DNA of 43,459 nucleotides from Bacteroidetes bacterium OLB12. Lineage in GTDB: Bacteria; Bacteroidota; Bacteroidia; Cytophagales; Cyclobacteriaceae. Numbering within the stretch: position 1 is the stretch's first letter; every line of letters starts with the position of its first letter. Both the position numbers and the translations under genes were made by a program. Below the pieces are notes generated by a model. The model had not been told where the DNA came from. It saw only the letters and a program-made list of their open reading frames with translations, and did no database searches. Below, one piece after another: positions 55 through 27,932 of the stretch. The stretch covers positions 1 through 43,459 of the forward strand of contig LNFR01000029.1 of NCBI GenBank assembly GCA_001567185.1, read 5' to 3'.

Positions 55-369
55 TTAAAATTTTAAAGTAACAATGTGGTCTGCATCTTCATTTGTTACG
101 GTGTACTCGTAGCTGGCAGGTAAAACATCAAAGGTTTCTGCGTCTTGTACAGTTCCATCCCAAAGCTTGGTAACGGTCAGACTTCCAAAACCTGCAGGGG
201 CCGCTGCGGTAATATCCACAGACACCTCTTCGCCCCACGAGGCTGTCACTTCAGTTTTCGAAATTGAAATGGATGGAGGGGCAGGTTCCTCATCGTCCTT
301 ACAGGATAACACAAATCCGGAAATACCCAGGATTGTGATAATAAGTGGTTTAAAAAAGTATCTTTTCAT
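55..369 (-). CDS. Small secreted lipoprotein with Ig-like features
   Basis: The 104-residue product starts with a basic signal peptide and a lipobox (FVLSC, Cys at about residue 23), followed by an acidic DDEEP linker. This is the usual form of a Bacteroidota surface lipoprotein. The remainder is beta-rich, like an Ig/PKD-type domain, but I do not recognise a named family. It has its own promoter: a TATATTTG -7 box at 396-403 just downstream of the GntR-type operator at 408-423, so it probably belongs to the mannoside regulon. Just after the stop, another frame reads ITDKK and then a third reads GRTDE, typical of such domains, so the 3' end may be frameshifted and the true gene may run off the left edge. 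Confidence 0.65.
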   Translation of the reverse strand: MKRYFFKPLIITILGISGFVLSCKDDEEPAPPSISISKTEVTASWGEEVSVDITAAAPAGFGSLTVTKLWDGTVQDAETFDVLPASYEYTVTNEDADHIVTLKF

Positions 370-403: not shown

Positions 404-407
404 GGTT

Positions 408-423
408 GTTCATATGTATGAAC
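408..423. promoter_or_regulatory. Palindromic operator site 1, probable GntR target
   Basis: The sequence is GTTCATATGTATGAAC, symmetric at all but the two central positions. It matches 15 of 16 bases with the site upstream of the mannonate dehydratase operon (10499-10514, read on the minus strand) and resembles the site in the GntR/GH38 intergenic region (2365-2380). That it binds the adjacent GntR protein is inferred from this co-occurrence and from its promoter positions. Confidence 0.7.
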
Positions 424-461
424 ATAGTTATTTTCGAAATATTTTCAATCGTTTGCAACTA

Positions 462-1572
462 TCACTCAGACAGTATTTTTTCGATGGGCACCCGGATAAA
501 CCGAGGCCTGTAAATAAGGGCATTTTCGTAATGATCCTGCAAATGCATGCTATTGGTATTATAGGAGATCAGGAGGTAATTATCTTCTGTAAACTGTGGA
601 TGAGCCACGGCATTGTAGGTGAAACAACTTTCACAACCCGTTAACGGAGGTGTTTCATAAATCATTTGTTTGTTCTGCCATGGTCCGAAGGGGGTTGCCG
701 CTGTAAACGAATAGATTTTTCGTCCAAACTCACCCTCCTGCATAATCATGATATACGTTCCGTTAAACTCAAAGACACTAAACTGCTCTGAACCGGTAAA
801 TTCAATCAAAGGAGCTGCTTCTTTCGGGTTGTTAACCCAGCTTTCTCCATTAAAAAATTGCCATTCGCCCCGCACGTTTCCAATGGGCGTACGTGCCACA
901 TAGGGCAATTTGTTTTTAAGGCCATAGATATACAGATATTCATCCGTTTCACAAATAGCATGGCCGTAGTGCACACTATCTAAGTTTGGAAAGCGATTTA
1001 CACGCAACGGCTTCAGATCGGGTAATGAAAACTCGGCTAATTCAGTATCAAGAAATTTGAAACCCCACATATCGTCCGGATTTTCCTGCGAAAATTTTGA
1101 AACAAATACGTTCAGATTTCCATCTTCAATAAATGCATCGCCCGGCCAATACCACAAGGCAAGTTCTGATTTACCACTCGTTCCATCTGCCACTTCGGGC
1201 GGTATAATCATAGATTTAAAATCCCGGGGATCTCCCTGCTGGTGAGTTTGTAATTTACCTTCCTCAAAGGTTACAAAACTATTGCGGATATACAGGGGCG
1301 AAGTTTTTATTCTGTGATAATCGGCTGTAACCCCACCAATAAACGAGTCTCCGAAAATCCAAAGTGTTCTTCCGTCTGGCAGTACAATGGAATAAGTGCC
1401 GTCTCCCCCTGTAAAGCCCTCTCCCGATGGAATGAACTTTTCGTTGAAAATTGAATCTTCAAACACAACTCTTGCATGCCCCTCAGACTTCAAATCCGTA
1501 GCGGCTGGTTTGCACGAAGCTAAAAAAAAGTAGCCCAGCAAGGGCAACTATTAAACTAATCTGTCCCCTCAT
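462..1572 (-). CDS. DUF4185/DUF5005-like secreted lipoprotein (frameshifted near its start)
   Basis: The body of about 360 residues has the motifs of a five-bladed beta-propeller glycosidase-like family: GDGTYSIVLPDGRTLWIFGDSF near the N-terminus, then repeated W/Y-rich blades. It resembles DUF4185/DUF5005 proteins, whose DUF4185 branch includes glycoside hydrolases; the substrate here is unknown. As sequenced the open frame begins only at TTG 1547. An ATG at 1572 in another frame reads MRGQISLIVALAGLLF and, if one T is removed from the run of eight at 1522-1529, continues to LASCKPAATD, a perfect lipoprotein signal. That ATG overlaps the corrected GntR stop by four bases (ATGA), so the two genes look translationally coupled. 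It probably acts at the cell surface in glycan use. Confidence 0.75.
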
Positions 1573-2302
1573 TCTCTTTCGCTCTCAACGGTATAAACAA
1601 TACTATCCGATTTATAATATCCAATATTGTATTCAATCGGACGCCTGCCCGGATCGTAAACAAATCGCTTTCGCTTAAGATAGGATCTCCGATTCTTACT
1701 TTCAGATGTTTTACAAGAAGCGCATCGGCTGCAATAGCCGTTATTTCTTCTTTACTCACTTTTGCAACAACCGAAAAGTCTTGCTCAAGTATTTCATAAA
1801 GCGGACGGTTAAAATCTTCGTTTCCGGTTAATCCTATTTTTGGATTAAAGTATGAAAGGAAATAAACGAATTGATTTTTCTTATCGCCCCGAACCCGCTC
1901 CATCTTTAACATCTTAACCTGCTTCTTGCCATCATACCCAAAAAATTTGAGCACTTCGTCCGGTGGCACCACCCATTCAAGCGCTATTTCATAGTTCACT
2001 ACCTCAATTCCTTTGGATTTCATCTCCTGGCTAAAGCTCATCCAGTTTTTAGCTTTGCTATCCACTGGTTTCGATACAACAGTACCCACGCCCTTCTTTC
2101 TGAGCAAAAGCCCTTCGTGCACGAGTTTATTTGTAGCCTGCCGAAGGGTGTTTCTGGAAATACCTAATTGTTGGGATAAATCAACCTCGTTTGGTAACAT
2201 CTTACCTGTCTGATATTCCTTCAAGGTCATCATCTTTCTTAGAAGCTGCTCAACCTGTATATGAAGCGGAATCGGACTTTTATGGTCAATGTGTATTCTC
2301 AT
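1569..2302 (-). CDS. GntR-family transcriptional regulator, HutC/UTRA type (frameshifted)
   Basis: The N-terminal winged helix occupies about residues 10-75, with the recognition region LGISRNTLRQATNKL followed by EGLLLRKKGVGTVV. The rest is a UTRA effector-binding domain. As read, the frame runs to 1556 with an atypical tail. Restoring one base near 1679 gives ILKRKRFVYDPGRRPIEYN and an ending VESERE with stop at 1569, which is the textbook UTRA C-terminus. It is transcribed divergently from the GH38 gene and coupled to the downstream lipoprotein. It likely controls the three palindromic operators in the locus, including its own promoter. A sugar or sugar acid such as mannose or mannonate is the probable effector; this is inference. 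Confidence 0.88.
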
Positions 2303-2360: not shown

Positions 2361-2390
2361 CAAAATTAGTATGTTTGAACATATGGACAA
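2361..2390 (-). promoter_or_regulatory. Promoter of the GntR gene overlapping operator site 2
   Basis: On the minus strand a TTG (2388-2390) is followed after 19 bases by TAATTTTG (2361-2368), fitting the Bacteroidota -33/-7 architecture (TTG, TAnnTTTG). The palindrome 2365-2380 sits between the two boxes and overlaps the -7 box, which suggests autorepression of the GntR gene. Confidence 0.55.
2365..2380. promoter_or_regulatory. Palindromic operator site 2 between gntR and GH38 genes
   Basis: ATTAGTATGTTTGAAC matches 13 of 16 bases with the mannonate dehydratase operator read on the minus strand. The right half site TTTGAAC is intact and the left is degenerate. It lies in the 80-base divergent intergenic region and ends two bases before ATG 2383, so it can control both directions. 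Its position favours ATG 2383 over ATG 2371 as the GH38 start, since the latter would lie inside the site. Confidence 0.6.
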
Positions 2391-5300
2391 CATTTTACGC
2401 GTTCGATTTTATATTTTGTTTTTGGCAGAACTGCTTGCTTTTACCGCGTTCTCCCAAGAACGACTTTCTGATTGGCCTGTAAAGAATGCAAACTTTTTAC
2501 AGGGTTTCGAACTAAAACAGCAGGGCGAAGTGCTTGACTTTTTGCCTCAACTGGGCCCTGGCAATATTGCCTTGCTTACGAGGGCAAACAAAAATTCACA
2601 ACCACTTCAATTCCAAACTGCGATTATTCCTGCTACTAATCACGATGAATATCTTTCATTTGTTTGGGGTGCAGCCATCTCCAGACGATTGCAAGAACCG
2701 GCAGGAAATTTTACGGTTTATATTAATGATGAGAAATACTTCACATTCTATTCACATAAAGACTCATTGGAAGCATCCTGGATTTTGAAGCAAGGAAATG
2801 CAGAACTGGCATTTGTTTCTACGGAGATTACAAAAGAAACACAAGATGCCTTTGGCTACATGTTCCTGAATCTGCCGGCAAAATCTTTTACGAAGGGAAG
2901 CAGGCTTACACTAAAAATAGTTAACGGCAACCAGGAAAGCATGGATTGGTATATGCCGTTTTCTGTACCTGTAAAGAATGAACTAATCATTTTGGCAGAG
3001 CCGGCTTTGGTGAAGGCGAACGGAGTATTGAAGCAGCGGGTAAGAGTAGAGCTTAATCACGCAGCAGGTGCAAGTAAACTTGAACTTACGCTTGGTAATT
3101 CGCCTAAACGAACAACGGTACTAAAACCCGGAAGGCAAATACTCTATCTCCATCACGATCCGGTTGCAGTTTCAACTACTAAAAACCTTATTGTTCGCAT
3201 TGCAGGCAGGCCCGATCTGGTTGAAAAAGTAACATTGAATCCTGTAAAGAAATTTGAGGTGTACTTCCTACCCCACTCCCACGTGGATATTGGATTCACA
3301 CACACGCAAGCTGATGTTGAGAAACTGCAATGGAGAAATTTTGAAAAAGCAATCAGCCTCGCTGAAAAAACCAAGGATTACCCGGATGGCGCGAAGTTTA
3401 AATGGAATGCCGAAATAACCTGGGCCGTAGAAGGATACCTGGCAACTGCAACGCCCGAGAAGAAAAAACGATTCATTGAAGCGGTGAAAAAAAATCAAAT
3501 AGGGTTAGATGCAGCGTATGGAAGCCAATTAACAGGCCTTCAACGAGAAGAAGAAATGATCAACAACCAACGGTATGCCTTAAAACTGAATGAAGAATAT
3601 GGTCTTGGAATTACAACAGCCATGAGCAGCGATGTGCCGGGCTATTCATGGGGAACCGTTGAATCTATGGCGCAATCCGGAATCCGGTACTTCTCCTCAG
3701 GCCCCAATCACATGCCACATTTACCTCATGGTGGTTATCAGGTTGGATATACCCTGGATGTTTGGGGTGATGTTCCGTTTTATTGGGAGTCAGCATCGGG
3801 TAAAGAAAAGATTCTTTTCTGGATGACCTCGCACGGTTATTCCTGGTTTCATGACTGGTCGGTAGATATACTAAGCAAAGCCGGAAGGCGATCCAATCTT
3901 AAAATTTCTTTCTGAGCTTGAATCTCAAAACTACCCTTATGACCTGGTACAGTTACGCTATACGATTGGAAATGATAACGGCCCTCCGGATGAAACGATG
4001 CCCGACTTTATCAAAAACTGGAACGAGACCTATGCGTTCCCAAAATTGCGCATTGCCACAACAAAAGAAATGATGGAGGAATTTGAGAAACGGTATGCTT
4101 CGCAAATACCAACGTATCGGGGCGATTTTACACCATACTGGGAAGATGGCGCTGCATCCTCAGCATTAGAAACCGGTCTTAACAGGAAATCAGCCGATCG
4201 GCTTGTTCAGGCCGAAACACTTTGGTGCATGCTGATGCCAGCCCGCGATTCCATTTCTATTTTCGATAGTGCCTGGAGAAAAATTGTGCTATTCTCGGAA
4301 CACACGTGGGGAGCGGCATCCAGCAAAACGCATCCCGATAGTGAACTTACAAAAAGTATCTGGAAGGTAAAGCAAAGTTTTGCTTTGGATGGCGATACAG
4401 AAACAACCACGCTGCTGAACATGGCCTTGAAAACCATCTCAACAGATGAACCAACTATCAGAGCGTTTCAAATCATAAACACTACATCCTGGAACCGCAC
4501 CGATCTTGTAACACTACCCGCTAACTGGAATTTAGCCGATAGCAGGATTACAGACGAAGTTGGTAAGCCTGTAATAACTCAACGGTTACAAAATGGAGAA
4601 GTAGCTTTTGTAGCCCGCGATATTCCTGCGCTCGGCTCAAAAAATATTATATAAAAAAAGGAAACAGCAGGAAAGCGCTACCCATGCATGCTACTCCATA
4701 TTCTATTTCCAATGGTCGTATTCACGTGGGGCTGAATTCAAATACTGGCAACATACATTCACTCACCTATCTGAATGGCGAGAACCTTATTAACGATAAG
4801 GATACGCTGGGCTTTAATGCGTATTGGTATGGCGGAATCATGAAATTGAATTTGAAAAAACAGGATTCGCCAACCTTCGAAATCACCGAACAGGGCAATG
4901 TGCTATCGAGCATAAAAGTTACATCGCAGGCACCCGGTGCCAAAAGCCTGACAAGAGAAATTCAACTGGTAAATGGATTAGATGTGGTTTACATCACAAA
5001 TGTTGTAGATAAAAAACCCATACTGGAGAATGAAAACGTTCGATTTGCATTCCCATTTAATATTCCCAATGGGCAGGTTCGGATTGATATTCCCTGGGCA
5101 ACTGTAAAACCAGAGAATGATCAACTAAAAGGAGCGAATAAAAACTTCTACTCAGTACAACGATGGGTTGATGTTTCTGATGATAACAGAGGAGTAACGC
5201 TGGCAACGATAGAGGCTCCGATATTGGAAATCGGAGATATGAATGGACAAAACTGGATGGCTGATCTGGCTGTTCGGCCCTGGATTTCAACGTATGAACC

Positions 5301-5748
5301 CTCCAGCACACTATTTAGTTGGGTAATGAATAACGCCTGGTTTGTTAATTACAAAGCTTCCCAGGAAGGAAAAATTCCGTTTCATTATATCCTGAAACCA
5401 CACGGATCTTTTAATGACATAGAATCCAAAAAATTCGGAATTGAACAAACGCAGCCGTTGATTGTTGTGCCCGTTAACATCAATACAGAGCCGATAAAAC
5501 CAATCTTAAAACTTAGCCCCCAGTCAAATCTGATAATTACCTCATTAAAGAAGAGCAGGGACGGCAAAGCAATCATGATTCGCTTCTTTAACCCAACCCA
5601 TGCACCGGGCAATGGAACAATTCTCTGGGAAAACATAAAGCCAAAGCAACTTTACAAAAGCAGTTTCAAAGAAGAAAAGAACGGAATAGAACTACCTACC
5701 CTCACGCTGGCACCATGGGAAGTAAGAACCATTCGCGTTGAACTATGA
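2383..5748 (+). CDS. GH38 alpha-mannosidase, secreted (two frameshifts as sequenced)
   Basis: The corrected protein is about 1120 residues. It begins with a signal peptide (VRFYILFLAELLAFTAFS) and a beta-rich N-terminal region of about 290 residues. The GH38 catalytic domain follows: HSHVDIGFTH near residue 298 is the conserved HxD metal-binding motif, and SSDVPGYSW near residue 417 carries the probable nucleophile Asp. The GH38 C-terminal beta domain starts around base 4500. The frame breaks near 3885, where removing one A from GGAAGGC restores GGDPILKFLSELESQ, and again at 4639-4644, where one missing A in a six-A run hides KKYYIKKGNSRKALP. Unbroken pieces are 2383-3915, a middle piece to 4654, and 4684-5748. 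It likely removes alpha-mannose from glycans in the periplasm. Its stop overlaps the next start (ATGA). Confidence 0.88.
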
Positions 5749-6752
5749 GAAGGGCAATTGCCATTTTAGTTATCAGCCTTCTTTGTTCAAAAGCATCTGC
5801 TGAAAGTCATCCCTACTCCATTACCTGGGTAACGGCCGATATTCAGGATAGTAAAATTCTCTTTTCAGTTAAAGTACAATCCGAAGACCTGCTTTATTTT
5901 CACTCGATACCGTATGATTCACTTTTTACCGTGAGTAAAGAGAAATTACTGGAGGCAGCGGACAAGCATAAAGAGGTGATTCAATCAGGGTTTCAAATTC
6001 TGGATGAAGATAAAATTCCATTGTATGGAACATTAATAGGATATAATTTTTCGAGCCTGGAAACCAAACGTGAATACACACTGATGGAATTGATGAAATA
6101 TCCGCTCTATTTTAATCTGGAGTTTGAGTTGCCGGATAAAACAGAACTCTTAACCTTTATGCAGATGCTCACTTCAGCCGGTATTCCTTCCGTTAGTTTA
6201 CTTCAGGTTGTTGCACAAAAAAATCTAATTATTCAAAATCACGAACTGAGCAACAGTCAGCCGCTTACAATTTCAAGGCATGCCCTGCATATAGGAACAC
6301 AAGCTGAATCCACATTCATGGTGTCTTACATCTCACTTACCGATACAAAAATCAATCATGAAGTGACGATTTCATACGCATTATTAAAATCCTTTATTAC
6401 CGTGAATGAGCAAACCATTGATTCATTACGTGTTTATCGGGCGTTCTTTGCAAACAACAGCACGGTAGAGATCAACGATCACACCATCGAACCCGTACTA
6501 ACAAGCTTAACCATTCAAAATAATACAGAAGATCGGCTAAATGATTTCTCACTGATCAACATACATGCGGAATATGCTATCAAATCCATTCCCGGAGACA
6601 TCGCCATATCCTGGAATAATTTTAACTGGAAGGTACGTTGGTTCAAATCATTCATCGACAGGTTTGGCGTATCCGATGAACATACGTTCTCCCGTTTCCG
6701 GCCCATCTATCAGGTTACCCGAAAGATTGAAATTAAACCCGAGGGAAATTAA
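5745..6752 (+). CDS. Secreted protein of unknown function coupled to the GH38 gene
   Basis: The 335-residue protein has a clear signal peptide (AIAILVISLLCSKASA, cleavage near residue 19) and no later membrane segment or lipobox. The rest is predicted beta-rich, with many VxVSY and ISLT strands. I recognise no family or catalytic motif. The start overlaps the GH38 stop by four bases, so it is translated with the mannosidase and presumably works with it in the periplasm, for instance as a glycan-binding or accessory protein; this is inference only. It converges with the sugar dehydrogenase gene, whose corrected end is one base away. Confidence 0.75.
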   Translation: MRRAIAILVISLLCSKASAESHPYSITWVTADIQDSKILFSVKVQSEDLLYFHSIPYDSLFTVSKEKLLEAADKHKEVIQSGFQILDEDKIPLYGTLIGYNFSSLETKREYTLMELMKYPLYFNLEFELPDKTELLTFMQMLTSAGIPSVSLLQVVAQKNLIIQNHELSNSQPLTISRHALHIGTQAESTFMVSYISLTDTKINHEVTISYALLKSFITVNEQTIDSLRVYRAFFANNSTVEINDHTIEPVLTSLTIQNNTEDRLNDFSLINIHAEYAIKSIPGDIAISWNNFNWKVRWFKSFIDRFGVSDEHTFSRFRPIYQVTRKIEIKPEGN

Positions 6753-6753
6753 T

Positions 6754-7525
6754 TCAGGTCCGCTTGCTTCCGCCAATTGAAATGCCCAGGCCTCCATCAA
6801 TCCGAAATGCTTGCCCCGTTATGAATGAAGCTTTGTCCGATGCGAGATAAACAATAAACTCGCCTACTTCTGTCGGGTCTCCCACTTTTTTTTAACAGAT
6901 GCATCTCTTCACATTCATGAAATACTTCCTCCGGATTTGGTGATTCGCGAATGGCTGCCTGCAGCATGGGGGTATTGATTGTTCCCGGGCAAACCGCCAC
7001 GCATCTTATTTCCGGGGCGTAGTCAACAGCTATGCTGCGCGTAAGACCGAGCAAAGCCGTTTTGGAAGTTGTATAAGCAGCAACCTGGCTTTGACTAATA
7101 AATGCCTGTACACTCGAAACATTAATCACAACTCCCTTTCCTTTCTTTTGCATAGATGGAATGGAATATTTAGAGGCAAGGAATACGCCTTTCAGATTAA
7201 TATTCATGACTGTATCCCACAACTCCTCCGTTGTTTCTGTTACCGTTGCATAGCGGTTTATTCCGGCATTGTTTACAAGAACATCCACCTCCCCATAATT
7301 TCGTATGGCAAGATCAATACACTCCTGAATGCTCGTAGCTTTCGCCATGTCGCATTCAAAAAATTTAATTTTTCCACCCGCTGTCTCTTCAAAACTTTTT
7401 CCGGATGGATCAACATCTAAAATGGAAACGTTTCCACCTTCGCGCACAAAAATTTCAGCAGCCGAACGGCCTATTCCTTTTACACCTCCGGTAACAATTA
7501 TATGTTTATCTGCAAAACTTTTCAT
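6754..7525 (-). CDS. SDR sugar dehydrogenase, AldT-like (probable mannose dehydrogenase; frameshifted)
   Basis: This is a classical short-chain dehydrogenase. It has the cofactor motif TGGVKGIG (residues 12-19), Asp37 after the second strand (suggests NAD), NNAG (85-88), and catalytic Ser138, Tyr151 and Lys155. An extra base in the T run at 6886-6893 breaks the frame. Removing it restores [20 protein letters not shown] and the family ending FRIDGGLG, with stop at 6754. The stretch NVSSVQA...AYTTSK...SIAVDYAP closely resembles, from memory, Thermoplasma acidophilum aldohexose dehydrogenase AldT, which prefers mannose. It is the last gene of the mannonate dehydratase operon and starts at ATG 7525, overlapping the lactonase stop. 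A YjmF-type fructuronate reductase is the main alternative. Confidence 0.82.
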
Positions 7526-8367
7526 GAGTGACAAACCAGTTTCAGTCCTTTAATTCCCAAATTAATCTTTGCAATGTGCCAACGGCCAATGTTGGCAACA
7601 AACAGTTGATCAAACGCAGCGCCACCAAAAGCAATGTTTGTAGGATTGGAAAGCGTATGAGCTTCCCAATCATCAATCAAAACTGATACCGCACGATTTT
7701 GGTCAACCTTGTAGATCTTATTGGGCGCATAACAGGAAACATACAGATTTCCGTTCGCATCAAAGGCCAGGCCATCGGGTACGGATTCAGGTAAGGTTAC
7801 AAATACTTCGCGGGTGCCCGCTGTGCCATCCGAATTTATCCGAATCCGCTCAACGCCAGGCATAAACGAACACACAACATAGAGGTAATTTTCCGCTGCA
7901 TCCATAGCCATTCCGTTTGCAAAGTTGAAGGGCCCATTGCACCAAACTTCACCATTTCCACCCAAATCGAATTTCAATATTTTACCAGTCGTCTGCCGGA
8001 ATGCCCCGCTTTCAGAAACATATACATTTCCCTTGCTATCAAAACACGCATAATTTGGAATGTTGAAAGAATGGCCCGCAACACCATCTGCAAATTTCGT
8101 TAGCGAGTAGTTTGAAGTATCCATTCTCCATAAACACTTCTTTCCTGAGTCGCAAATCAATAACCAGCTTCTGTCCGGGCAAAATGCAATGCCCAATATA
8201 AAGCCACCTGTATTGGCAACTACCTCCATACGGTTATCGCTGGTTATCTTATAGATTTGTCCGGCTTCACCACCTGCCCACAACGTTCCATCAGGATGGT
8301 AGGCAACACACTCGGGATGATCCAAGCCTTCAGCAATAACTTGAGTCTTATTCAGAAAATTCATCAT
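7522..8367 (-). CDS. SMP-30/gluconolactonase family sugar lactonase
   Basis: The 281-residue protein is a six-bladed beta-propeller of the SMP-30/Gnl/luciferin-regenerating type. Visible marks are HPECVAYHPDGTLWAGGEAG near the start (the family Glu metal ligand in HPE), FNFANGMAMDAAENYLYV (ligand Asn) and PDGLAFDANGNLYVS (ligand Asp). There is no signal peptide, so it is probably cytoplasmic. It likely opens an aldonolactone, here mannono- or gluconolactone, to the free acid. It directly follows the DUF4432 stop with no gap and overlaps the SDR start by four bases, fitting a dehydrogenase-lactonase pair. Confidence 0.87.
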   Translation of the reverse strand: MMNFLNKTQVIAEGLDHPECVAYHPDGTLWAGGEAGQIYKITSDNRMEVVANTGGFILGIAFCPDRSWLLICDSGKKCLWRMDTSNYSLTKFADGVAGHSFNIPNYACFDSKGNVYVSESGAFRQTTGKILKFDLGGNGEVWCNGPFNFANGMAMDAAENYLYVVCSFMPGVERIRINSDGTAGTREVFVTLPESVPDGLAFDANGNLYVSCYAPNKIYKVDQNRAVSVLIDDWEAHTLSNPTNIAFGGAAFDQLFVANIGRWHIAKINLGIKGLKLVCHS

Positions 8368-9390
8368 CTATTTGGGGTTAAAGTCATTCTCAAAAGCATG
8401 GGCAGTAAAAACCGTTTTAACTGCAGCGCGGGCATTTAGTATAAACCACTCCTTGTTATCAATTGCCTTTTGGGGTTCATTAGTCCACCTGGAAGTCCAG
8501 GGTTCTAACGCCAGGGTGTAACATTGCCCCCACCACGGAAAGTTTTTTATTGCATTCCGTTCATGCCACATCCATAAACTCTTAAACAATTTACCATCCC
8601 AGGTAAAAGCAAAGCCTACATTTTTTACATTATTCTTTACAGAATAAAAAGCGTTGGTATCAAAGCCCTCCAGGTAACACAAGTCGCTGTATTCAGTAGT
8701 GCCTTTCGCTGAAAAAATTCGTGCATCGTCTGGTGTGTTTGCTTTTGACCTGGCCATTGGCCATGAATAAATTTCGCCCCGTTTAAATCGATGTTGCTCC
8801 GGCATGGCTGGCTCGGGTTCCATGGTTACCGCATTGGTAGCAATTGCAACTCCTTCCTCTAAAAATGGTAAGCCAAAGGCAATGTGCTGACCCCACATCA
8901 GATCGATGGGTGTGGGGCTTAAATTCTCAACATGTTCTTCAATCACTAAATGCATTGCATCTTTTTCAAGCGAAAAAGTTCTTTCAATTTTAACAGGAAC
9001 CCGTAACGGTTGTGCACTGCATTTTATACTAAGTTTAGCAGCAGTGTTCTTAAGAATCGAAACTTCCCACGGAATAAGCGAAACCTCCCCGTGCTGACCA
9101 AGCTCTGCACCTCGGTAATTAAACGCGGGACTATTCGGCAAGCACACTTGCCAGCCTCCATAATAATAATCCTCAAATTGATTTTTAGTACTTCTTACCT
9201 GGCTAAAATTAGTTTGTGGATTTACTATTCCTTTCGGAAGACGAAGTAAAAAATCTATATCCTTCTTTTTATATCGAAATTCAAAAATGTCGCATCCCCG
9301 ATCGGTCAGAACACCAATCTTCAAAAAATTATTTTCCAAATAGATAGCACGCAAGTCGTTTATCCGTATTTCCGACAATTGGCAACTCAT
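8368..9390 (-). CDS. DUF4432 aldose 1-epimerase-like protein
   Basis: The 340-residue product matches the DUF4432 family, which belongs to the galactose mutarotase-like fold. Typical features are LTDRGCDIFEFRYKKKDIDFLL near residue 28, GGWQVCLPN near 80, and an EEHVENLS...DLMWGQHIAFG core around residues 150-175. No signal peptide is visible, so it should be cytoplasmic. In this operon a mutarotase that supplies the anomer used by the dehydrogenase would make sense, but DUF4432 has no well-established activity that I know of. It overlaps the mannonate dehydratase stop by four bases (ATGA). Confidence 0.85.
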   Translation of the reverse strand: MSCQLSEIRINDLRAIYLENNFLKIGVLTDRGCDIFEFRYKKKDIDFLLRLPKGIVNPQTNFSQVRSTKNQFEDYYYGGWQVCLPNSPAFNYRGAELGQHGEVSLIPWEVSILKNTAAKLSIKCSAQPLRVPVKIERTFSLEKDAMHLVIEEHVENLSPTPIDLMWGQHIAFGLPFLEEGVAIATNAVTMEPEPAMPEQHRFKRGEIYSWPMARSKANTPDDARIFSAKGTTEYSDLCYLEGFDTNAFYSVKNNVKNVGFAFTWDGKLFKSLWMWHERNAIKNFPWWGQCYTLALEPWTSRWTNEPQKAIDNKEWFILNARAAVKTVFTAHAFENDFNPK

Positions 9391-10457
9391 TCGCTCGAAT
9401 TAATAGTTTGCATGGCTCCTTTCATAAACCCAAGGGCATAGGCCATTCCGGTGTGCCAACTTGCCTGGGTAGTCATTTCAGGTGTATGATCCGGAATTAG
9501 TACACCCTCATAATTATTTTGCTTCAATATTTTTAAAGCCTTGATCATGTCAATATCTCCTTCATCCACAAATGCTTCGCGGTAATGAGGAACTTTACCT
9601 ATAACATTTCTAAAATGAATATATCCAATTCTATTTTCCTTGCTGTATCTGTCCAGTAAGGAATAAACGTCACTCCCGGGCATTTCCTGGATAGTACCCA
9701 TACAAAATTCAAATCCGTTGGATGCGCTTTTACTTATGTCTAGCAGTTTTATGTACTCATCGGTATTATAAAAAAGCCTGGCTGTTTTGCGCATTTCAGG
9801 CAGGGGTGGATCATCGGGGTGAGCTACTAATCTTACTCCGTTTTCTTCAGCAACAGGTAACATATGTTTCAGAAAATACTCCAATCGCTGCCACATCTCT
9901 TCTCTTGATACCGGAGGTATAAACTCACCCGGTTTTTCATCTTCATAGCGCATATTCCAGACCATCCCTTTTGGGATTGGTTGATGTATATCTACCTTAC
10001 TTGCATCAAAAATTATTGAATTTGCATCCGCTCTTCCACCTGGCCCGCTGGTCCAACCCCACACCCCTGCCAGACTAAAATAATATCCCATAATGGGTAT
10101 TCCTGCTTTCCCCATATTACGCAAGATGGATTTCAGTCCTTCCAATTGCTTTTCCTTTTCAGGACCATCAAGCAGTACATCATACCAATGAGATGGGTCA
10201 AAGTTTTCAATTGCTTCCAGTACCAATCCGTGCGATTCAATTTCCTTCTTAAGGCTAAGAAGTTCATCGTATGTCCAAATTTTTCCTTGATTGCGGGTTT
10301 CGCCCCACCCATTAAGAAAATTCTTTGTTAGGGATGGGTTGTCGCCCTTAACATAGTCAACCAACTGCGCTACAATATGAGTGGCACCTGCCTGCCGGGC
10401 AAATCTGAAATTATCCCGATTCAAAACACTGCGATATAAACCAAGACCAAGTTTCAT
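9387..10457 (-). CDS. uxuA: Mannonate dehydratase
   Basis: This enzyme dehydrates D-mannonate to 2-keto-3-deoxy-D-gluconate (EC 4.2.1.8) in a metal-dependent TIM barrel. The 356-residue sequence keeps the family landmarks: EAIENFDPSHWYD near residue 80, GYYFSLAGVWGW near 125, HPDDPP near 213, YIHFRNV near 280 and DHTPE near 323, which supply the metal and substrate ligands. It is slightly shorter than the E. coli enzyme but in the range of Bacteroidota homologues. It is the first gene of a four-gene operon with ATGA overlaps or no gaps, under the operator at 10499-10514. No uronate isomerase (UxaC) or classical UxuB is nearby, which argues that mannonate comes from mannose oxidation. Confidence 0.92.
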   Translation of the reverse strand: MKLGLGLYRSVLNRDNFRFARQAGATHIVAQLVDYVKGDNPSLTKNFLNGWGETRNQGKIWTYDELLSLKKEIESHGLVLEAIENFDPSHWYDVLLDGPEKEKQLEGLKSILRNMGKAGIPIMGYYFSLAGVWGWTSGPGGRADANSIIFDASKVDIHQPIPKGMVWNMRYEDEKPGEFIPPVSREEMWQRLEYFLKHMLPVAEENGVRLVAHPDDPPLPEMRKTARLFYNTDEYIKLLDISKSASNGFEFCMGTIQEMPGSDVYSLLDRYSKENRIGYIHFRNVIGKVPHYREAFVDEGDIDMIKALKILKQNNYEGVLIPDHTPEMTTQASWHTGMAYALGFMKGAMQTINSSE

Positions 10458-10498
10458 ACTATAAGACCAATAACGTTAAGCATTACACCGGATAATTT

Positions 10499-10514
10499 GT
10501 TCAAACATATGAAC
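10499..10514. promoter_or_regulatory. Palindromic operator site 3 with embedded -7 box, uxuA operon
   Basis: GTTCAAACATATGAAC reads on the minus strand as GTTCATATGTTTGAAC, which contains TATGTTTG, an exact TAnnTTTG -7 box. A TTG lies 21 bases further upstream on that strand, fitting the -33 element. Transcription would start near 10496 and give a leader of about 40 bases before ATG 10457. Repressor binding would cover the -7 box. Confidence 0.7.
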
Positions 10515-10574
10515 GTGCAGTAAACTTATTCAATTTTAACACATTTATTCTGTTTACTTGCTTTAAACTGAAAG

Positions 10575-20436: not shown

Positions 20437-21552
20437 TTAAGGATTTAAAGTTTTTGAATTATGTGCATGAGCCGGGTTAACCCCGTACTTCAAAATATAT
20501 TCGCTGTAAAGCAAGTAGGCACCGGAAACAACAACCCGCTCGCCCGGCTGAAGTCCTTCCAGAATTTCTACCTCCGAAAAATTTTCCATACCCGTTTTTA
20601 CCATTCGTGGTTGAAATGAATTTTTATCCGACTCGATATATACGTGGGTTCCATCTTCGCTGCGGATTACAGCCTGCACGGGCAAAGTTATAGATCCATT
20701 CTTATGCTGATCAATCCATACCTGGGCCGGCATACCCGGCTTCAGTCCACCCGGATTTTTTACATCACCCCACAAAAGCCAGGTTTGTTGCCCTGCTTTA
20801 AACTCGGGGTTAAGAAATTTCACTTCCATATTCAGTATCTCAAATCCATCAACCTTTACCTTAAGCTTATCACCTGCTTTTACCAGATCAGCTTCATTCG
20901 CAAAAAGTTCAGCTTCGATCCGCAGTTTCTCCAGGTTCTCTATCTCATAAAGTTTACTTCCTTCAGAAACCAATTGCCCTTCCTGCGCATCGATAGTTTT
21001 AACGATGCCCGAAGTGGGAGCAACAAAAGTAAGGCGTGGCTCTTTCTTACCTGTAGTTGCCAATTTATCCACCTGTACTTCTGTTAGGCCATATAAAATC
21101 AATTTCTTTCGTGCAGCAGTTCCAATGGCTTTGTAATGGCTTTGATTACGCACTGCGTTAGCCTGGGTGTGGGCCATTAGATATTCTTCCTGTAAGGTAA
21201 GGAGGTATTCACTATAAATTTCGTACAACGGTTGGCCTTGTTTTACCGGCTTACCGGTTTCCTTCACATATAAGCGTTCAATTCTACCTGCCACGCGGCT
21301 ACTGATTACCTCAGAAAAAGAAGTGTTGGTAGCTACCTTTGCATTTATAATACGCGGCTCTTGTATATTTCTAACTTCTGCCTTCTGAATTTGAATGTTT
21401 GCCAGCGCAATTTGTGAATCGGTTAACATCAGGCCCGATATCGATCCTGTTTCGGTTACAGGCGCGTTATGGTTATGATCTGTTTGTGCATCTTTTTGCG
21501 AGCAGGAAACACTCATCAAAATCATAGCTACCAAAATCCACATTCGGCTCAT
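20437..21552 (-). CDS. CusB/HlyD-type efflux RND periplasmic adaptor (second copy)
   Basis: The adaptor bridges inner-membrane pump and outer-membrane channel. The lipoprotein signal MWILVAMILMSVSC supports a start at ATG 21552. An upstream ATG at 21618 in the same frame would add 22 residues ahead of the signal. The His-rich DHNHN patch follows the lipid anchor. Next come the barrel-sandwich halves (SRVAGRIERLYVKETGKPVKQGQPLYEI and FVAPTSGIVKTIDAQEGQLV), an alpha-hairpin between them, and the beta-barrel and membrane-proximal parts (GLKPGMPAQVWID, EILEGLQPGERVVVSG). It has no N-terminal heavy-metal-binding domain, unlike the adaptor just upstream. Confidence 0.87.
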   Translation of the reverse strand: MSRMWILVAMILMSVSCSQKDAQTDHNHNAPVTETGSISGLMLTDSQIALANIQIQKAEVRNIQEPRIINAKVATNTSFSEVISSRVAGRIERLYVKETGKPVKQGQPLYEIYSEYLLTLQEEYLMAHTQANAVRNQSHYKAIGTAARKKLILYGLTEVQVDKLATTGKKEPRLTFVAPTSGIVKTIDAQEGQLVSEGSKLYEIENLEKLRIEAELFANEADLVKAGDKLKVKVDGFEILNMEVKFLNPEFKAGQQTWLLWGDVKNPGGLKPGMPAQVWIDQHKNGSITLPVQAVIRSEDGTHVYIESDKNSFQPRMVKTGMENFSEVEILEGLQPGERVVVSGAYLLYSEYILKYGVNPAHAHNSKTLNP

Positions 21553-21620
21553 AACAATTTTTAAATATCCGGTGGCCAGGTATTCTCTCTTTAGTTGGAT
21601 GTTCAATTTATCTATCATAC

Positions 21621-22878
21621 CTAGTGTGCATTTCTTATAAATCCCTCACTATCTACCAGAAACTGGGCATGGGCTGCAATCTCATCCGATGAGCTAATAC
21701 CCTGAACCGATACCCGATCATCCGCATACTGTTTAATTTCAACAGGCTTTGCCTTAAACGCATTTCGGGTTTTTACAAACACAATCCGTTCAAGCCCCAG
21801 GTCAACAATCGCTTCTCGCGGAATCCAGATTGCTTCGTTCGAATTCGTTTTCCAACTAGCCTTCACCAACTCTCCTATTTTCAGATTAGCATTTGGTACA
21901 TTAACCCGTACCGTTACAAACTCCTGGTTGGTTTCGTAAAACGGTTGTACAAAATCAACCCGGGTGTAAATCGCTTTGCCATTTACCAGAATGGCCACAC
22001 TATCACCTGCTTTAATCATTTTGCTCTGTTCTGGTGTTGTACTCAAATCAATACGCAAGGCCCGGGTATCAATAACCTTAAACAGGGTTTGTCCGGCTGT
22101 TACATAGTTACCCTCGCGAATAAACTCAGCAACAACCGGAGTTTGTGAAACCGCTGGCTCCATTCCCATGGTTGAGGGTACTGGAGCGATTGGTGCCGCT
22201 GTGGCTTCCGTTATAATGTAGCCATCATGATCGCTATATACAGCAAATTGATATTGTGCTTTACGCGATGCGATCAGTTCACTTTAATTGTTCGTTGCTT
22301 ACTCCCAGCAATCTCAATTTTGATTTACTGTCAGCAAGTAACGTTTCGTCCTGTGTTGGTTGATTCAGAAGGTAAATTAATTCCTGCTGGGCAGCAACTA
22401 ATTCCTGGCTATAAATTTCCGCTACCTTCATTCCCTTTTTTACGGGTTGAAAATTGTTCTTGATATAAACCTTTTCTAACCTGCCACCAATTTTAACCGG
22501 AATAGTAAAAGCATACCGCGTATCATAAGTTACCACGCCCGGAATATCAAATAAGATCGCCTTACGTGTGTACTCGCCTTTAACTGTTTCAATCTGCGAT
22601 ACAATTGTTTCGTTGGGCGACTTTATCAAACGTGCAAGATCTTCGGTAATGCGGACTTCCTCACCCGGGCGGGCCTTCCGCACCAAATCCATATTGCATA
22701 CGGGGCAAACTCCTTGCTTGTCAGAAATTACCGTAGGGTGCATGGGGCATGTGTAGGTATCGATGGTTCCCGCCTCCTGTTTTGATGAACAGGCTATTAA
22801 CAGGAAGCAATATACCCCCGGTAGTAAGCAGGAGATAATAAAGCGGCTTACGCTCCTATTTTTCAATTTCTTTCTCAT
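21621..22878 (-). CDS. cusB: CusB-type adaptor with N-terminal heavy-metal-binding domain (frameshifted)
   Basis: A lipoprotein signal ending LLIAC is followed by the short heavy-metal-binding motif YTCPMHP...CPVCNMDL, known from CusB/CopA-type proteins. HlyD/CusB domains come next. The first frame stops at 22279 after NEQLK. Removing one base there gives NEQLNELIASRKAQYQFAVYSDHDGYI, and the second frame continues to the stop at 21621. The pieces are thus halves of one protein of about 419 residues. It should form the CusCBA-like tripartite pump with the TolC and CusA products and pass Cu(I)/Ag(I) to them. Confidence 0.86.
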
Positions 22879-24142
22879 AACTCACTATCATTTCGTAATA
22901 CTTAAGTTTGGTATCCAGGTATTGGAGACGCGTCATATTCAGTGCTTCCCAGCCATCAATTACCATAGGCAGTTCTTCCTTGTTTTCTTCATACGCCAGC
23001 ATTACCGTTTCATAATTCTTTTGAAGTGCCGGCATAATGCGCTGTTCGTAATTGTCTAATTGCTTCTTTAGCGTATTAATCTCTGAAAGCATCCGGGTTG
23101 TCATGCCCTGTACTTCATTCATTATCGCTACACGCTCGGTCTTCATTGAACCAATCTCATAATCCATTGCTTTGGCATTGGCTTTATACATTTTTGACGA
23201 CCACGGTGCGATAGGTATGGTAACCATACCTAACAGCATGAACTGGTTAGGCATTCCCTGTCCTACCGAAATCATGTGACTGAAGTTGATGTTGAAATCC
23301 GGACGGGTTTGTGCTTTTTCCAGGGCCTGGTTCAGTCGCATAGAATGAATGGTTCGATCCAGCTGCATCAAATCACTTCTGTTTACGGATAGCAGGGTGG
23401 TATCCACCAATACGGGATTAAAAGGAGACACAACGGTGTCGATCTCAAGATTAGTGGCCGGTGCACTATTCATCAACTGCAGTAATAAATTGCGTTGCTG
23501 TTCTATACCATTGTCGTTCATCAACTGCATATTTTTAATCTCATACAATCGGCCTTCGGCTTTGTAAATATTTGCCAGCTTCTCCTGATTGTAAGGATAT
23601 CGCACCCGGGCAACCTTTAGCATTAGGTTTAGTATTTCTTCAGACTCAACCAACTGCTTCTTTTTCTGCGCAAGTACAATCCAGGTGTAGTAAGCACCCT
23701 TTGCCTGGGCCCGAAGTTGGTTATAAAGTACACGCTCGTTGGCATGCTCAATATCAGCCCGCGAAGCCATGTATTCGTGGTTGGCTTTCAACTTGGCAGG
23801 ATTGGTAAAAGTTTGCGAAACCGATACCATAACCTGGCGGGTATCTTCCATCATGCCATAGTCTTGTTTTTGATAGGGAAACATCCACAAGCCACCACCT
23901 ACTTCCGGTGCCATTATGCTCCTGGAGCCTGCCACATATGCATGCATCGCATTCGCGCGGTTACGGTAAGTCTGCAACATCGGATTTTCCCTCTCAATTA
24001 CTTTGAGAACACTATCCAGGCTAAGGGATTGTGCCTGCACCCACCCTGTGGATAGAATGCCAAATACTGAAATCAACAACCCGAATAAAGAAACGCCCAT
24101 TCGCGAATGTTTCTGTTCTAATTTTTTATTTTCAGTTTTCAT
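22856..24142 (-). CDS. TolC-family outer-membrane efflux protein (CusC-like)
   Basis: The product of about 428 residues has a signal peptide ending GWVQAQ and two long alpha-hairpin repeats typical of TolC: LDSVLKVIERENPMLQTY at the start and VMLAYEENKEELPMVIDGWEALNMTRLQYLDTKLKYYE at the end. It forms the outer-membrane channel of the metal efflux complex. I chose ATG 24142, which overlaps the CusA stop by 11 bases; an upstream in-frame ATG at 24175 would put extra residues before the signal. It overlaps the start of the first adaptor. Confidence 0.9.
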   Translation of the reverse strand: MKTENKKLEQKHSRMGVSLFGLLISVFGILSTGWVQAQSLSLDSVLKVIERENPMLQTYRNRANAMHAYVAGSRSIMAPEVGGGLWMFPYQKQDYGMMEDTRQVMVSVSQTFTNPAKLKANHEYMASRADIEHANERVLYNQLRAQAKGAYYTWIVLAQKKKQLVESEEILNLMLKVARVRYPYNQEKLANIYKAEGRLYEIKNMQLMNDNGIEQQRNLLLQLMNSAPATNLEIDTVVSPFNPVLVDTTLLSVNRSDLMQLDRTIHSMRLNQALEKAQTRPDFNINFSHMISVGQGMPNQFMLLGMVTIPIAPWSSKMYKANAKAMDYEIGSMKTERVAIMNEVQGMTTRMLSEINTLKKQLDNYEQRIMPALQKNYETVMLAYEENKEELPMVIDGWEALNMTRLQYLDTKLKYYEMIVSYEKEIEK

Positions 24143-27100: not shown

Positions 27101-27289
27101 GTCTTCCATTATTTGTGGACTGCGGCCCATCCATTCGGTAAAAACGATTACCTGGTTTTCAGATAAATCGGGTATGGCATCTATCTTATTCGTTTGTACG
27201 GAGTGAAAACCCCAGAAAGTTGCTCCGGCTGCAACCAGCAATACGAGAAAACGGTTTCGAAGGGAAAAGGAAATTATTTTTTCAATCAT
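24132..27289 (-). CDS. cusA: CusA/CzcA heavy-metal efflux RND pump (two frameshifts)
   Basis: The corrected protein is about 1050 residues with the RND layout: helix 1, large periplasmic loop, helices 2-6, second loop, helices 7-12. The N-terminal region (IDAIPDLSENQVIVFTEW...TPTLGPDGTGVG) is characteristic of CusA/CzcA pumps. The frame breaks in the T run at 25204-25208, where removing one base restores ERVKSILQAVPGVKDLYVDP, and in the G8 run at 24873-24880, where seven G restore QDGPPMIVSDNALLRGA. Open pieces are 27289 to about 25206, 25197 to about 24876, and 24872 to 24132. It pumps monovalent (Cu/Ag) or divalent metal ions by proton exchange. The neighbouring DUF3347 and HMBD proteins favour copper. 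Confidence 0.9.
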
Positions 27290-27397
27290 AGATTAAACGT
27301 AAGTAGTGAGACACAAGGCGTAAAAACGACTGTGAATTCCAGAGACTCAAAAACATGTGATCTATCGATCTTATGTTTAAAGTCGTACTACTTAGAT

Positions 27398-27805
27398 CTA
27401 AATAAGAAAGGATTGAATCAACACAGGAATATCGTGCTGAAGCAAGGGTGGTTTATACTGTGTATGGTGTGCAACCGGTGAAGAAGCCGCAGGAATAATA
27501 ACCGCAAGCAGGGGTAGTTCTGCCACCCAGGCCTGTTGTACAGGTTGGAATCCGGTTGACTCATGAACTTTAAAATCTTTGCCTTCAAAAACAAACTGCT
27601 CGTCATCGCAGCAAGCCACCCGCTTGGCAAAAGTCTTGTGGCAGGGCGGAGTGTTTACTTCCATGGGGCATGGTGCCGCTTTTTCGATTAACGACACACT
27701 TTGTAAACTACCACCGCACAAATGCATATTTACTGTAAAACTACTGGATGCAACCAGCACCAATACAGCAAGAGAAAGTGAAACAATCGTGCGAAGGGCT
27801 TTCAT
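27398..27805 (-). CDS. HYC_CC_PP family small secreted protein
   Basis: The 135-residue protein has an N-terminal hydrophobic signal (TIVSLSLAVLVLVASSSF), the motif NMHLCGG, a pair of Cys in CPM and PPCHK, then VACCDDE, and a C-terminal YKPP. This ordered set (H-x-C, CC, PP) marks the HYC_CC_PP family found beside copper/heavy-metal genes in Bacteroidota, here with Leu at the Tyr position. Function is not established; the Cys/His set suggests periplasmic metal binding. It heads the Cus-like operon, 108 bases before CusA, and is preceded by a TACA-N2-TGTA operator. Confidence 0.83.
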   Translation of the reverse strand: MKALRTIVSLSLAVLVLVASSSFTVNMHLCGGSLQSVSLIEKAAPCPMEVNTPPCHKTFAKRVACCDDEQFVFEGKDFKVHESTGFQPVQQAWVAELPLLAVIIPAASSPVAHHTQYKPPLLQHDIPVLIQSFLI

Positions 27806-27810
27806 GAGTT

Positions 27811-27820
27811 TACAAATGTA
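27811..27820. promoter_or_regulatory. CopY/BlaI-type operator TACAAATGTA
   Basis: The site is an exact TACA-N2-TGTA palindrome, extended to TTACAAATGTAGTAA, six bases upstream of the HYC_CC_PP start. This is the consensus for CopY/BlaI/MecI-type repressors, some of which are copper-responsive. No such repressor is encoded in the window, so it would act in trans. On the minus strand the same bases read TACATTTG and may double as a -7 box. Confidence 0.5.
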
Positions 27821-27932
27821 GTAATTTTTTGGTATCTGGTGGTCTGACGGGAATTAACCCAAAATCCATCGCAAAAGAACAAATCACAGAATTATCCCTG
27901 GTTACACAATTCCGGAAATATGTTACAACATT

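What the first reader, a model, noticed from the sequence alone, without database searches (positions are those of the whole stretch)
2361..10514. Candidate non-phosphorylative mannose oxidation operon linked to a GH38 alpha-mannosidase
Seen: mannonate dehydratase, DUF4432 mutarotase-fold protein, SMP-30 lactonase and SDR dehydrogenase form one operon with ATGA overlaps or no gaps, and a GH38 alpha-mannosidase stands next to it under what looks like the same operator. Known: GH38 releases mannose; UxuA makes 2-keto-3-deoxygluconate from mannonate; Thermoplasma acidophilum oxidises mannose via the SDR AldT and a mannonate dehydratase. Inference: this bacterium converts released mannose (GH38 > anomer exchange by DUF4432 > SDR > lactonase > UxuA) without phosphorylation. 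A dedicated, transcriptionally unified mannoside-to-KDG operon with a mutarotase step is, as far as I know, not described in Bacteroidota. No UxaC or classical UxuB is in sight, which argues against the hexuronate route.
Basis: partly seen in the sequence, partly recalled or inferred. Interest (0 to 1): 0.78.

Follow-up and report, generated by a model that had tools for sequence, protein, structure and literature searches.

The report
Mannose-oxidizing operon inside alpha-mannan locus
A rare gene cassette in some Bacteroidota, tied to enzymes that cut mannose off sugar chains, probably oxidizes that mannose instead of phosphorylating it first, a route that our searches found proposed only for archaea.

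Summary
A four-gene operon (UxuA-family dehydratase, DUF4432, SMP-30/NHL propeller, AldT-like SDR; 6797-10457, minus strand) shares a palindromic operator with a neighbouring GH38 alpha-mannosidase and a SusC/SusD locus. The dehydratase, a lactonase-type propeller and an SDR recur together in ten Bacteroidota genomes, nine with DUF4432. All ten loci hold a GH38 or GH92 alpha-mannosidase (combined P about 2.5e-7 in six genomes). The lactonase position is filled by two Pfam families in three types, which supports a real lactonase step. The genome keeps a separate UxuA/UxaC/GH67 hexuronate locus without the operator. Best reading: oxidation of released D-mannose to 2-keto-3-deoxygluconate (KDG). 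Two corrections. First, this genome also has a KDG-kinase-like/KDPG-aldolase pair, and its locus carries a ROK kinase and a mannose-6-phosphate-isomerase-like protein, so it is not purely non-phosphorylative, and the oxidative branch could serve a second sugar. Second, four relatives add a second SDR, three of them with a 2,4-diketo-3-deoxy-hydrolase-like gene, which could make the route fully non-phosphorylative. No substrate is proven. GH38 and the SDR have broken frames here; intact relatives exist.

The parts
9387..10457 (-). UxuA-family aldonate (probably D-mannonate) dehydratase, first gene of the operon
   Evidence: Pfam UxuA 173.3 bits; below both NCBIfam UxuA cut-offs; best PDB hits mannonate dehydratases 3ban, 1tz9, 4eac; H213, C252, H281, D323 kept in 9 of 9 operon homologues aligned, G031 not in the alignment
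8368..9390 (-). DUF4432 protein, predicted aldose 1-epimerase (mutarotase)
   Evidence: Pfam DUF4432; AlphaFold model pTM 0.70, mean pLDDT 63.9, Foldseek best hits GalM-type mutarotases, E 7e-15; H100, H169, E296 invariant in 10 sequences, D236 in 9 with E in one
7522..8367 (-). SMP-30/NHL beta-propeller, predicted sugar lactonase
   Evidence: Pfam SGL 93.1 bits; position taken by canonical SMP-30 or PF10282 lactonases in other genomes
6797..7534 (-). AldT-like SDR aldose dehydrogenase; frame lost near 6880-6900, the rest of the domain stands in another frame
   Evidence: best NCBIfam PRK06398 aldose dehydrogenase, 237.6 bits, cut-off 341; intact relative's best PDB hits 3vtz and 2dtd; C-terminus departs from relatives; DNA read
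10498..10515 (-). operator upstream of the dehydratase operon
   Evidence: 1 mismatch to TGTTCATATGTNTGAACA; same place in G025, G031, G058
2372..2389 (-). operator over the GH38 start region
   Evidence: 3 mismatches; G025 has the same arrangement, also 3 mismatches
407..424 (+). perfect operator upstream of the lipoprotein/SusC/SusD unit
   Evidence: 0 mismatches; same place in G025 and G031 (0 mismatches) and G058 (1 mismatch)
1556..2302 (-). GntR/UTRA regulator, probable binder of the operator
   Evidence: Pfam GntR and UTRA; homologue in 7 of 10 loci
462..1547 (-). DUF5005/DUF4185 propeller, GH183-like candidate glycosidase
   Evidence: Asp pair 18 residues apart as in GH183
55..369 (-). 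start of the PUL lipoprotein, shorter than relatives (283-311 aa)
2371..3915 (+). GH38 alpha-mannosidase, N-terminal piece
   Evidence: Pfam Glyco_hydro_38N
3998..4654 (+). GH38 alpha-mannosidase, middle piece in another frame
   Evidence: Alpha-mann_mid 20.2 bits, below its cut-off 31.1
4684..5748 (+). GH38 alpha-mannosidase, C-terminal piece
   Evidence: Glyco_hydro_38C and 38C2
5745..6752 (+). secreted protein of unknown family, partner of GH38
   Evidence: no Pfam or NCBIfam match at E 0.01; 49% identical homologue beside GH38 in G025

Best explanation
This is the intracellular oxidative branch of an alpha-mannan polysaccharide-utilization locus controlled by one GntR regulator. GH38 (and, on contig C5, GH92) release mannose. 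DUF4432 equilibrates its anomers. The AldT-like SDR oxidizes D-mannose to mannonolactone with NAD(P)+, the propeller lactonase opens it to D-mannonate, and the UxuA-family enzyme dehydrates it to 2-keto-3-deoxygluconate (KDG). In this organism KDG probably leaves through the KDG-kinase-like/KDPG-aldolase pair on C52. In relatives it may leave through a 4-dehydrogenase plus 2,4-diketo-hydrolase pair encoded beside the operon (to pyruvate and D-glycerate). Shown: gene content, order, operator, conservation, alpha-mannosidase linkage. Inferred: every reaction, the regulator-operator match, the sugar.
For: Operon and operator real. Operator before the UxuA operon and before the lipoprotein/SusCD unit in four genomes and nearly confined to this locus in G000; weaker sites (3 mismatches) before UxuA and GntR in the distant G410 and before GH92 and the M6PI-like gene in Cerina. 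Intact SDR relative closest to 3vtz and 2dtd; PRK06398 aldose dehydrogenase is the best NCBIfam family. Dehydratase homologous to mannonate dehydratases with metal ligands kept. Mutarotase fold. Lactonase position filled by two Pfam families in three types. A GH38 or GH92 alpha-mannosidase in all 10 loci, the only GH38 genes found in G000, G192, G216, G260 and G410 lying there, combined P about 2.5e-7 in six genomes. In G192 and G260 the operon stands with alpha-mannosidases but no M6PI-like gene in the flanks held. Separate hexuronate locus. KDG exit present.
Against: The locus of the window's own organism also carries a ROK kinase, an M6P-isomerase-like protein and an MFS sugar porter, which could take all the mannose. 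The window dehydratase is only 28-30% identical to the two pieces of the genome's other UxuA and misses the NCBIfam cut-offs. The SDR misses the PRK06398 cut-off (281.3 against 341 for an intact relative); 2dtd leads an uncharacterized protein (2d1y) by under 1 bit. GH183-like proteins hint at a furanose in the glycan. G192 lacks DUF4432 and its SDR is only 28-36% identical to the others. SDR2 passes only the broad NCBIfam 'glucose 1-dehydrogenase' subfamily cut-off (242.1 against 215), leads other SDRs in the PDB by 1-2 bits only, and the mannose-locus SDR2 and FAH do not stand apart from fucose-locus ones by identity. No operator site at up to 3 mismatches in the G192 flanks or the G216 loci held.
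Confidence: 0.6

Rival explanations
1. Mannose is handled by the locus's MFS porter, ROK kinase and M6P-isomerase-like protein, and the oxidative operon serves a second sugar of the same glycan (D-arabinose or another furanose freed by the GH183-like proteins, a 6-deoxy or O-methyl mannose, or a related aldose).
For: M6PI-like protein in 8 of 10 loci and MFS in 8 of 10; ROK and M6PI-like fused in one frame in G161; DUF5005/DUF4185-type proteins with the GH183-like Asp pair in 6 of 10 genomes, a DUF4185 protein by Pfam in G410 as well; FAH closest to a 6-deoxy-sugar enzyme with a clear margin; divergent dehydratase.
Against: G192 and G260 keep operon and alpha-mannosidases without M6PI-like or GH183-motif genes in the flanks held; no ROK was found there by tblastn, which also misses ROK-like frames in G216 and G410. 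UxuA relatives in the PDB are named mannonate dehydratases, and D-arabinonate has the other C3 configuration (recalled).
Confidence: 0.27
2. The operon is part of hexuronate (glucuronate to fructuronate to mannonate) catabolism, the SDR acting as a UxuB-like reductase.
For: UxuA family membership.
Against: A UxuA (in two frames), UxaC and GH67 set sits on C85 without the operator; no UxaC seen by eye among the frames of the 10 loci (no search was run there); lactonase and mutarotase-fold genes have no role in that route; the SDR resembles aldose dehydrogenases.
Confidence: 0.04
3. The operon in this particular genome is decaying (GH38 and SDR broken) and does nothing here.
For: Frames lost in GH38 and SDR.
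Against: Breaks also hit UxuA on C85, FAH on C64, SusD and GH92 on C5, which points to indel errors in the assembly; the SDR break lies by a homopolymer run; operators and the other three operon frames are intact.
Confidence: 0.07

Closest known systems
Thermoplasma acidophilum oxidative mannose route (AldT, ManD, KDG aldolase)
   Same: An SDR aldose dehydrogenase and a mannonate dehydratase turn D-mannose into KDG without phosphorylation (passages of PMC6901390; Kopp 2019 not held, known from its citation)
   Different: Here there is a lactonase and a mutarotase-fold gene, one operon with a GntR operator, an alpha-mannan locus with GH38/GH92, and other candidate KDG exits; a KDG aldolase was not searched for, and whether T. 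acidophilum ManD is of the UxuA family was not checked
Predicted mannose oxidation in Natronoglomus mannanivorans (haloarchaea)
   Same: Mannonate dehydratase genes beside mannanases, a distant AldT homologue, KDG kinase and KDPG aldolase (passages of PMC10963439)
   Different: beta-mannan, archaeal; the AldT-like gene is numbered apart from the cluster, which holds a GH109-family protein instead; no DUF4432 or lactonase in the passages read
Non-phosphorylating L-fucose / L-rhamnose pathway (route II)
   Same: Dehydrogenase, lactonase, dehydratase, then in relatives a second SDR and an FAH-family gene. PDB best hits of the G058 copies: 8xwk (SDR family oxidoreductase), with 8y4j and 8y46, L-KDFDH per PMC11199699, within 0.2 bits, and 8gsr L-2,4-diketo-3-deoxyrhamnonate hydrolase. 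L-KDFDH accepts D-KDG, 105-fold below its best substrate
   Different: UxuA-type dehydratase, AldT-type SDR, propeller lactonase, alpha-mannosidase locus; a separate L-fucose-type cluster stands on C64. SDR2's lead over other SDRs is 1-2 bits; FAH is below the NCBIfam cut-off (348.9 against 500)
Hexuronate UxuA/UxaC pathway
   Same: Dehydratase family and KDG product
   Different: Aldose input, separate locus, no shared operator

Membership tests
UxuA mannonate dehydratase | Pfam PF03786 above gathering score | tested here: met
   173.3 against 23.7 bits
UxuA mannonate dehydratase | NCBIfam TIGR00695 / NF003027 curated cut-offs | tested here: not met
   106 against 199.55 and 137.6 against 191; the C-terminal piece of the C85 UxuA passes both
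UxuA mannonate dehydratase | His/Cys/His/Asp metal ligands (positions recalled from the S. suis enzyme) | tested here: met
   H213, C252, H281, D323 kept in 9 of 9 operon homologues aligned
UxuA mannonate dehydratase | activity on D-mannonate | not testable with these tools
   needs purified enzyme
AldT-like aldose dehydrogenase | closest solved relatives are Thermoplasma aldose dehydrogenases (organism and name AldT recalled) | tested here: met
   3vtz 204.5 bits and 2dtd 182.2 are the best two for the intact relative L010; third is 2d1y, 181.4
AldT-like aldose dehydrogenase | NCBIfam PRK06398 cut-off 341 | tested here: not met
   237.6 for the broken window protein, 281.3 for L010 and 257.1 for L012; still the best family for each
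AldT-like aldose dehydrogenase | mannose preference | not testable with these tools
   residue aligned with E of AGIE in 2dtd is N or Q in the operon SDRs other than G192; meaning unknown
GalM-type mutarotase | galactose mutarotase fold | tested here: met
   Foldseek best hits 3mwx, 4bze, 3ty1, TM 0.60-0.67 by query length; model mean pLDDT 63.9 with 112 of 340 residues below 50
GalM-type mutarotase | His/His/Asp/Glu catalytic set (H96, H170, D243, E304 in L. lactis, mutants named) | tested here: inconclusive
   H100, H169, D236, E296 conserved in the same order (E for D236 in G410), but equivalence rests on order and spacing, and H100 lies in a low-confidence stretch of the model
SMP-30 lactonase | Pfam SGL above gathering score | tested here: met
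   93.1 against 26.3
GH38 alpha-mannosidase | N-terminal and C-terminal Pfam domains above gathering score | tested here: met
   37.5/25, 40.8/25, 45/22; middle domain 20.2 below 31.1
Thermoplasma-type non-phosphorylative mannose route | KDG aldolase cleaving unphosphorylated KDG | not tested
   no KDG aldolase search was run; a KDPG-aldolase-family gene and a KDG-kinase-like pfkB gene are adjacent on C52
Route II (4-dehydrogenase plus 2,4-diketo-hydrolase) | both genes beside the operon in the window's own genome | tested here: not met
   no FAH in window or C5 stretch; the own FAH sits with an SDR in the fucose-type cluster on C64; the pair is beside the operon in G058, G161, G410

The most novel reading that the evidence does not exclude
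A complete bacterial non-phosphorylative D-mannose pathway: DUF4432 as a mannose mutarotase, AldT-like dehydrogenase, lactonase, UxuA-type dehydratase, then KDG 4-dehydrogenase and 2,4-diketo-3-deoxygluconate hydrolase giving pyruvate and D-glycerate (one six-gene run in G410), spread patchily through Bacteroidota as a module of alpha-mannan loci and running beside a phosphorylative mannose branch in the same regulon.
Probability: 0.33. Interest if true: 0.75.

Novelty: new variant of a known kind. Interest (0 to 1): 0.6.

Why it matters
If right, it brings oxidative mannose catabolism, which our searches found proposed only for archaea, into Bacteroidota and welds it to alpha-mannan capture by SusC/SusD. 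It gives DUF4432 (named in 2 papers of the library) a testable job, and shows a lactonase step filled by different propeller families. It also poses a sharp question: why keep a ROK/M6P-isomerase branch and an oxidative branch for one sugar in one locus? Four purified enzymes from one intact relative would settle it.

Tried and rejected
Rejected: hexuronate route (separate UxuA/UxaC/GH67 locus on C85, no operator site at up to 3 mismatches in the 19,972 bases read). Rejected: chance gene neighbourhood (the same steps in ten genomes). Not used as decisive: the residue aligned with AldT E of AGIE (N/Q here, meaning unknown) and a separate 'mannose' group of SDR2/FAH (identities to fucose-locus copies are about as high). 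Led nowhere: AlphaFold model of the dehydratase (mean pLDDT 58.9), not used; a search of solved structures with DUF4432 (0 hits); class and order surveys added no new genome. Not done: searches for UxuB, KDG aldolase or glycerate kinase; a tree of the UxuA family; one genome search, three family scans and one PDB search were left unused.

Full report
OBSERVATION. The window is the whole of contig C29 of its genome, G000. The four genes run on the minus strand: UxuA family 9387-10457, DUF4432 8368-9390, SMP-30/NHL 7522-8367, SDR 6797-7534, with a 4-base overlap, a direct abutment and a third junction without a gap. Pfam confirms each family above its gathering score. GH38 lies at 2371-5748 in three frame pieces, followed by a secreted protein without Pfam match. 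The SDR also loses its frame, near 6880-6900, beside a homopolymer run. Frame breaks occur elsewhere in this assembly too: UxuA on C85, FAH on C64, SusD and GH92 on C5. Indel error is therefore more likely than decay.

REGULATION. A palindromic operator, TGTTCATATGTNTGAACA, lies upstream of UxuA (10498-10515, 1 mismatch), over the GH38 start region (2372-2389, 3 mismatches) and upstream of a lipoprotein gene (407-424, perfect). Five strand-matches compare with 0.17 expected. One of the five, at 34428, looks like chance, and the palindrome at 407 counts twice. In whole genomes at up to 2 mismatches the operator stands before the UxuA operon and before the lipoprotein/SusC/SusD unit in G000, G025, G031 and G058, with none in G059. 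The same search gave one or no further site per genome (C9 in G000, C88 in G025, 818200 in G058), and the control pattern 0 or 1. G025 also has an operator over its GH38 start. At 3 mismatches there are sites before UxuA and before GntR in G410 and before GH92 and the M6PI-like gene in Cerina; there are none in the operon stretches L060 (G161), L061 (G216) and L063 (G192) or in the hexuronate, fucose and KDG-exit stretches of G000. A GntR/UTRA gene sits in the locus. That this protein binds this operator is inference.

THE LOCUS IS LARGER. In G000 the locus continues on contig C5: SusC end (by eye), SusD (84% identical to G058 over its main piece), an M6PI-like protein, an MFS sugar porter, a ROK kinase, a 771-aa-type lipoprotein, GH92, DUF5005 and DUF4185 proteins. 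Adjacency of C29 and C5 is inferred from gene order in relatives; the contigs were not joined. The M6PI-like protein matches mannose-6-phosphate isomerase 1qwr over residues 225-556 of the G031 homologue, E 7e-15.

DISTRIBUTION. A DUF4432 query hit 3 of 58 relatives, including G000. A dehydratase profile hit 6 of 395 genomes of the phylum, 4 of 395 of the class and 1 of 390 of the order, each including G000, the samples overlapping. One scan of genome contigs gave 3 loci: a Cyclobacteriaceae MAG (L010, G058), a Chloroflexota MAG (L011, DUF4432 and an SDR but no UxuA seen by eye) and Cerina litoralis, Flavobacteriaceae (L012, G059). L011 is left out of the counts below. Ten Bacteroidota loci remain. 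Dehydratase 10 of 10 (partial at a contig end in G031); SDR 10 of 10 (that of G192 only 28-36% identical); DUF4432 9 of 10 (not G192); a lactonase-type propeller 10 of 10. The propellers are NHL/SMP-30-like (PF08450, low score) in G000, G025, G031, G058, G410; canonical SMP-30 (PF08450, high score) in G059, G161, G216; PF10282 in G192, G260. The three types do not find each other by tblastn at 1e-8 (Pfam was run on 6 of the 10, the rest placed by homology). Replacement of one lactonase type by another in the same place is good evidence that a lactone is opened.

ALPHA-MANNOSIDASE LINK. GH92 and GH38 were mapped in all ten genomes. Every locus has one or both. GH38 is in the same contig in G000, G192 (7 kb), G216 (10 kb), G260 (3 kb) and G410 (21 and 34 kb), in each case the only GH38 genes found. 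In G025 the GH38 domain search found nothing, but GH38 pieces lie at two contig ends. No GH38 was found in G031, G058, G059, G161, and no GH92 in G410. GH92 is in the locus in G025, G031, G058, G059, G161, G192, G216 and G260, and on C5 in G000. For six genomes (G161, G192, G216, G260, G410, G058) random placement gives P between 0.006 and 0.023 for the nearest mannosidase, combined 2.5e-7; GH38 alone in four genomes 4.7e-7. The window's genus and G059 were left out of this. It ignores any general clustering of carbohydrate genes and uses rounded sizes for some genomes.

MECHANISM. SDR: the best PDB hits of an intact relative are 3vtz (204.5 bits) and 2dtd (182.2), then 2d1y (181.4). I know the first two as Thermoplasma enzymes and 2dtd as AldT (recalled); AldT as a mannose-oxidizing enzyme is in the passages. 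Dehydratase: best PDB hits are mannonate dehydratases, ligands conserved, but it falls short of both NCBIfam cut-offs, while a piece of the genome's other UxuA passes them. DUF4432: the AlphaFold model (mean pLDDT 63.9, pTM 0.70, four sequences) matches GalM-type mutarotases, with a His, His, Asp/Glu, Glu set in the GalM order. KDG exit in G000: a pfkB kinase whose best NCBIfam matches are a KDPG-aldolase/sugar-kinase fusion and KDG kinases (all below cut-off) and a KDPG-aldolase-family gene, adjacent on C52. In G058, G161 and G410 an SDR2/FAH pair lies beside the operon, and in G025 SDR2 alone. For the G058 copies, SDR2's best PDB hits are 8xwk, 8y4j and the 8y11/8y46 sequence (161.8-161.6 bits), the latter two entries L-2-keto-3-deoxyfuconate 4-dehydrogenase in PMC11199699, but other SDRs follow at 160.3 bits and below; FAH's best is L-2,4-diketo-3-deoxyrhamnonate hydrolase, 275.3 against 228 for the next. 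In G058 and G025 the SDR2 is divergent from UxuA with an operator between; in G161 the pair converges on the operon; in G410 it follows on the same strand. L-KDFDH acts on D-KDG, 105-fold less efficiently than on its best substrate.

WHAT SPEAKS AGAINST. The M6PI-like gene in 8 of 10 loci and ROK genes beside it mean mannose may be phosphorylated, and the GH183-like DUF5005/DUF4185 proteins (Asp pair 18 apart in 6 of 10 genomes) hint at a second, furanose sugar. G192 and G260, where operon and mannosidases stand without those genes in the 19.9 and 34.8 kb held, favour mannose. No tool here can show the substrate.

LITERATURE. Searches of the held open-access library (listings seen) found no Bacteroidota mannose-oxidation operon. 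Passages were read in PMC6901390, PMC8975820, PMC10963439, PMC11199699, PMC12021255, PMC10115798, PMC10509167, PMC5507952 and PMC13274419. Kopp 2019 (T. acidophilum ManD) is not held and is known only through citations. Subscription journals are mostly missing, so absence here is weak evidence.

VERDICT. Observation confirmed; interpretation partly supported. It is a new variant of a known kind: an oxidative aldose pathway, probably for mannose, embedded in an alpha-mannan locus.

Noticed in passing
L051:535-2850; own genome L070:6430-8713 (two frames): A 771-aa lipoprotein without Pfam match lies between ROK and GH92; copies in G000 (a 403-residue piece), G025 and G058 are 72-82% identical to the G031 one, 30% in G410: candidate new glycosidase family.
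   Followed up: partly
window 5745-6752: A secreted 335-aa protein without Pfam match follows GH38; a 49% identical homologue is beside GH38 in G025. By eye a similar protein follows GH38 in G216 (L075:3685-4656), but tblastn at 1e-8 does not link them.
   Followed up: partly
window 462-1547; L070:11711-12814: DUF5005/DUF4185 proteins carry two Asp 18 residues apart, as in GH183 endo-D-arabinanases; the glycan may contain a furanose. The L070 copy's only PDB hit is 4hbs, a putative hydrolase.
   Followed up: partly
G000:C64, L044:6629-11113: Separate fucose-type oxidative cluster by likeness to G031 (SDR, FAH, fuconolactonase-like amidohydrolase, SDR, FucP-like permease; families tested on the G031 copy L046).
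   Followed up: partly
L060:15779-18463: ROK kinase and M6PI-like protein are fused in one 894-aa frame in G161.
   Followed up: no
L063:14312-15007: An RraA-like aldolase-family gene lies near the operon in G192 and might be another KDG exit.
   Followed up: no
L011:9935-11858: A Chloroflexota MAG has DUF4432 and an SDR together, no UxuA seen among its frames, so DUF4432 may work in other sugar-oxidation contexts.
   Followed up: no
window 20437-28583: A heavy-metal efflux set (RND pump pieces, membrane-fusion proteins with a metal-binding motif, an AraC-type regulator) with broken frames in the pump; named by eye from frames only.
   Followed up: no
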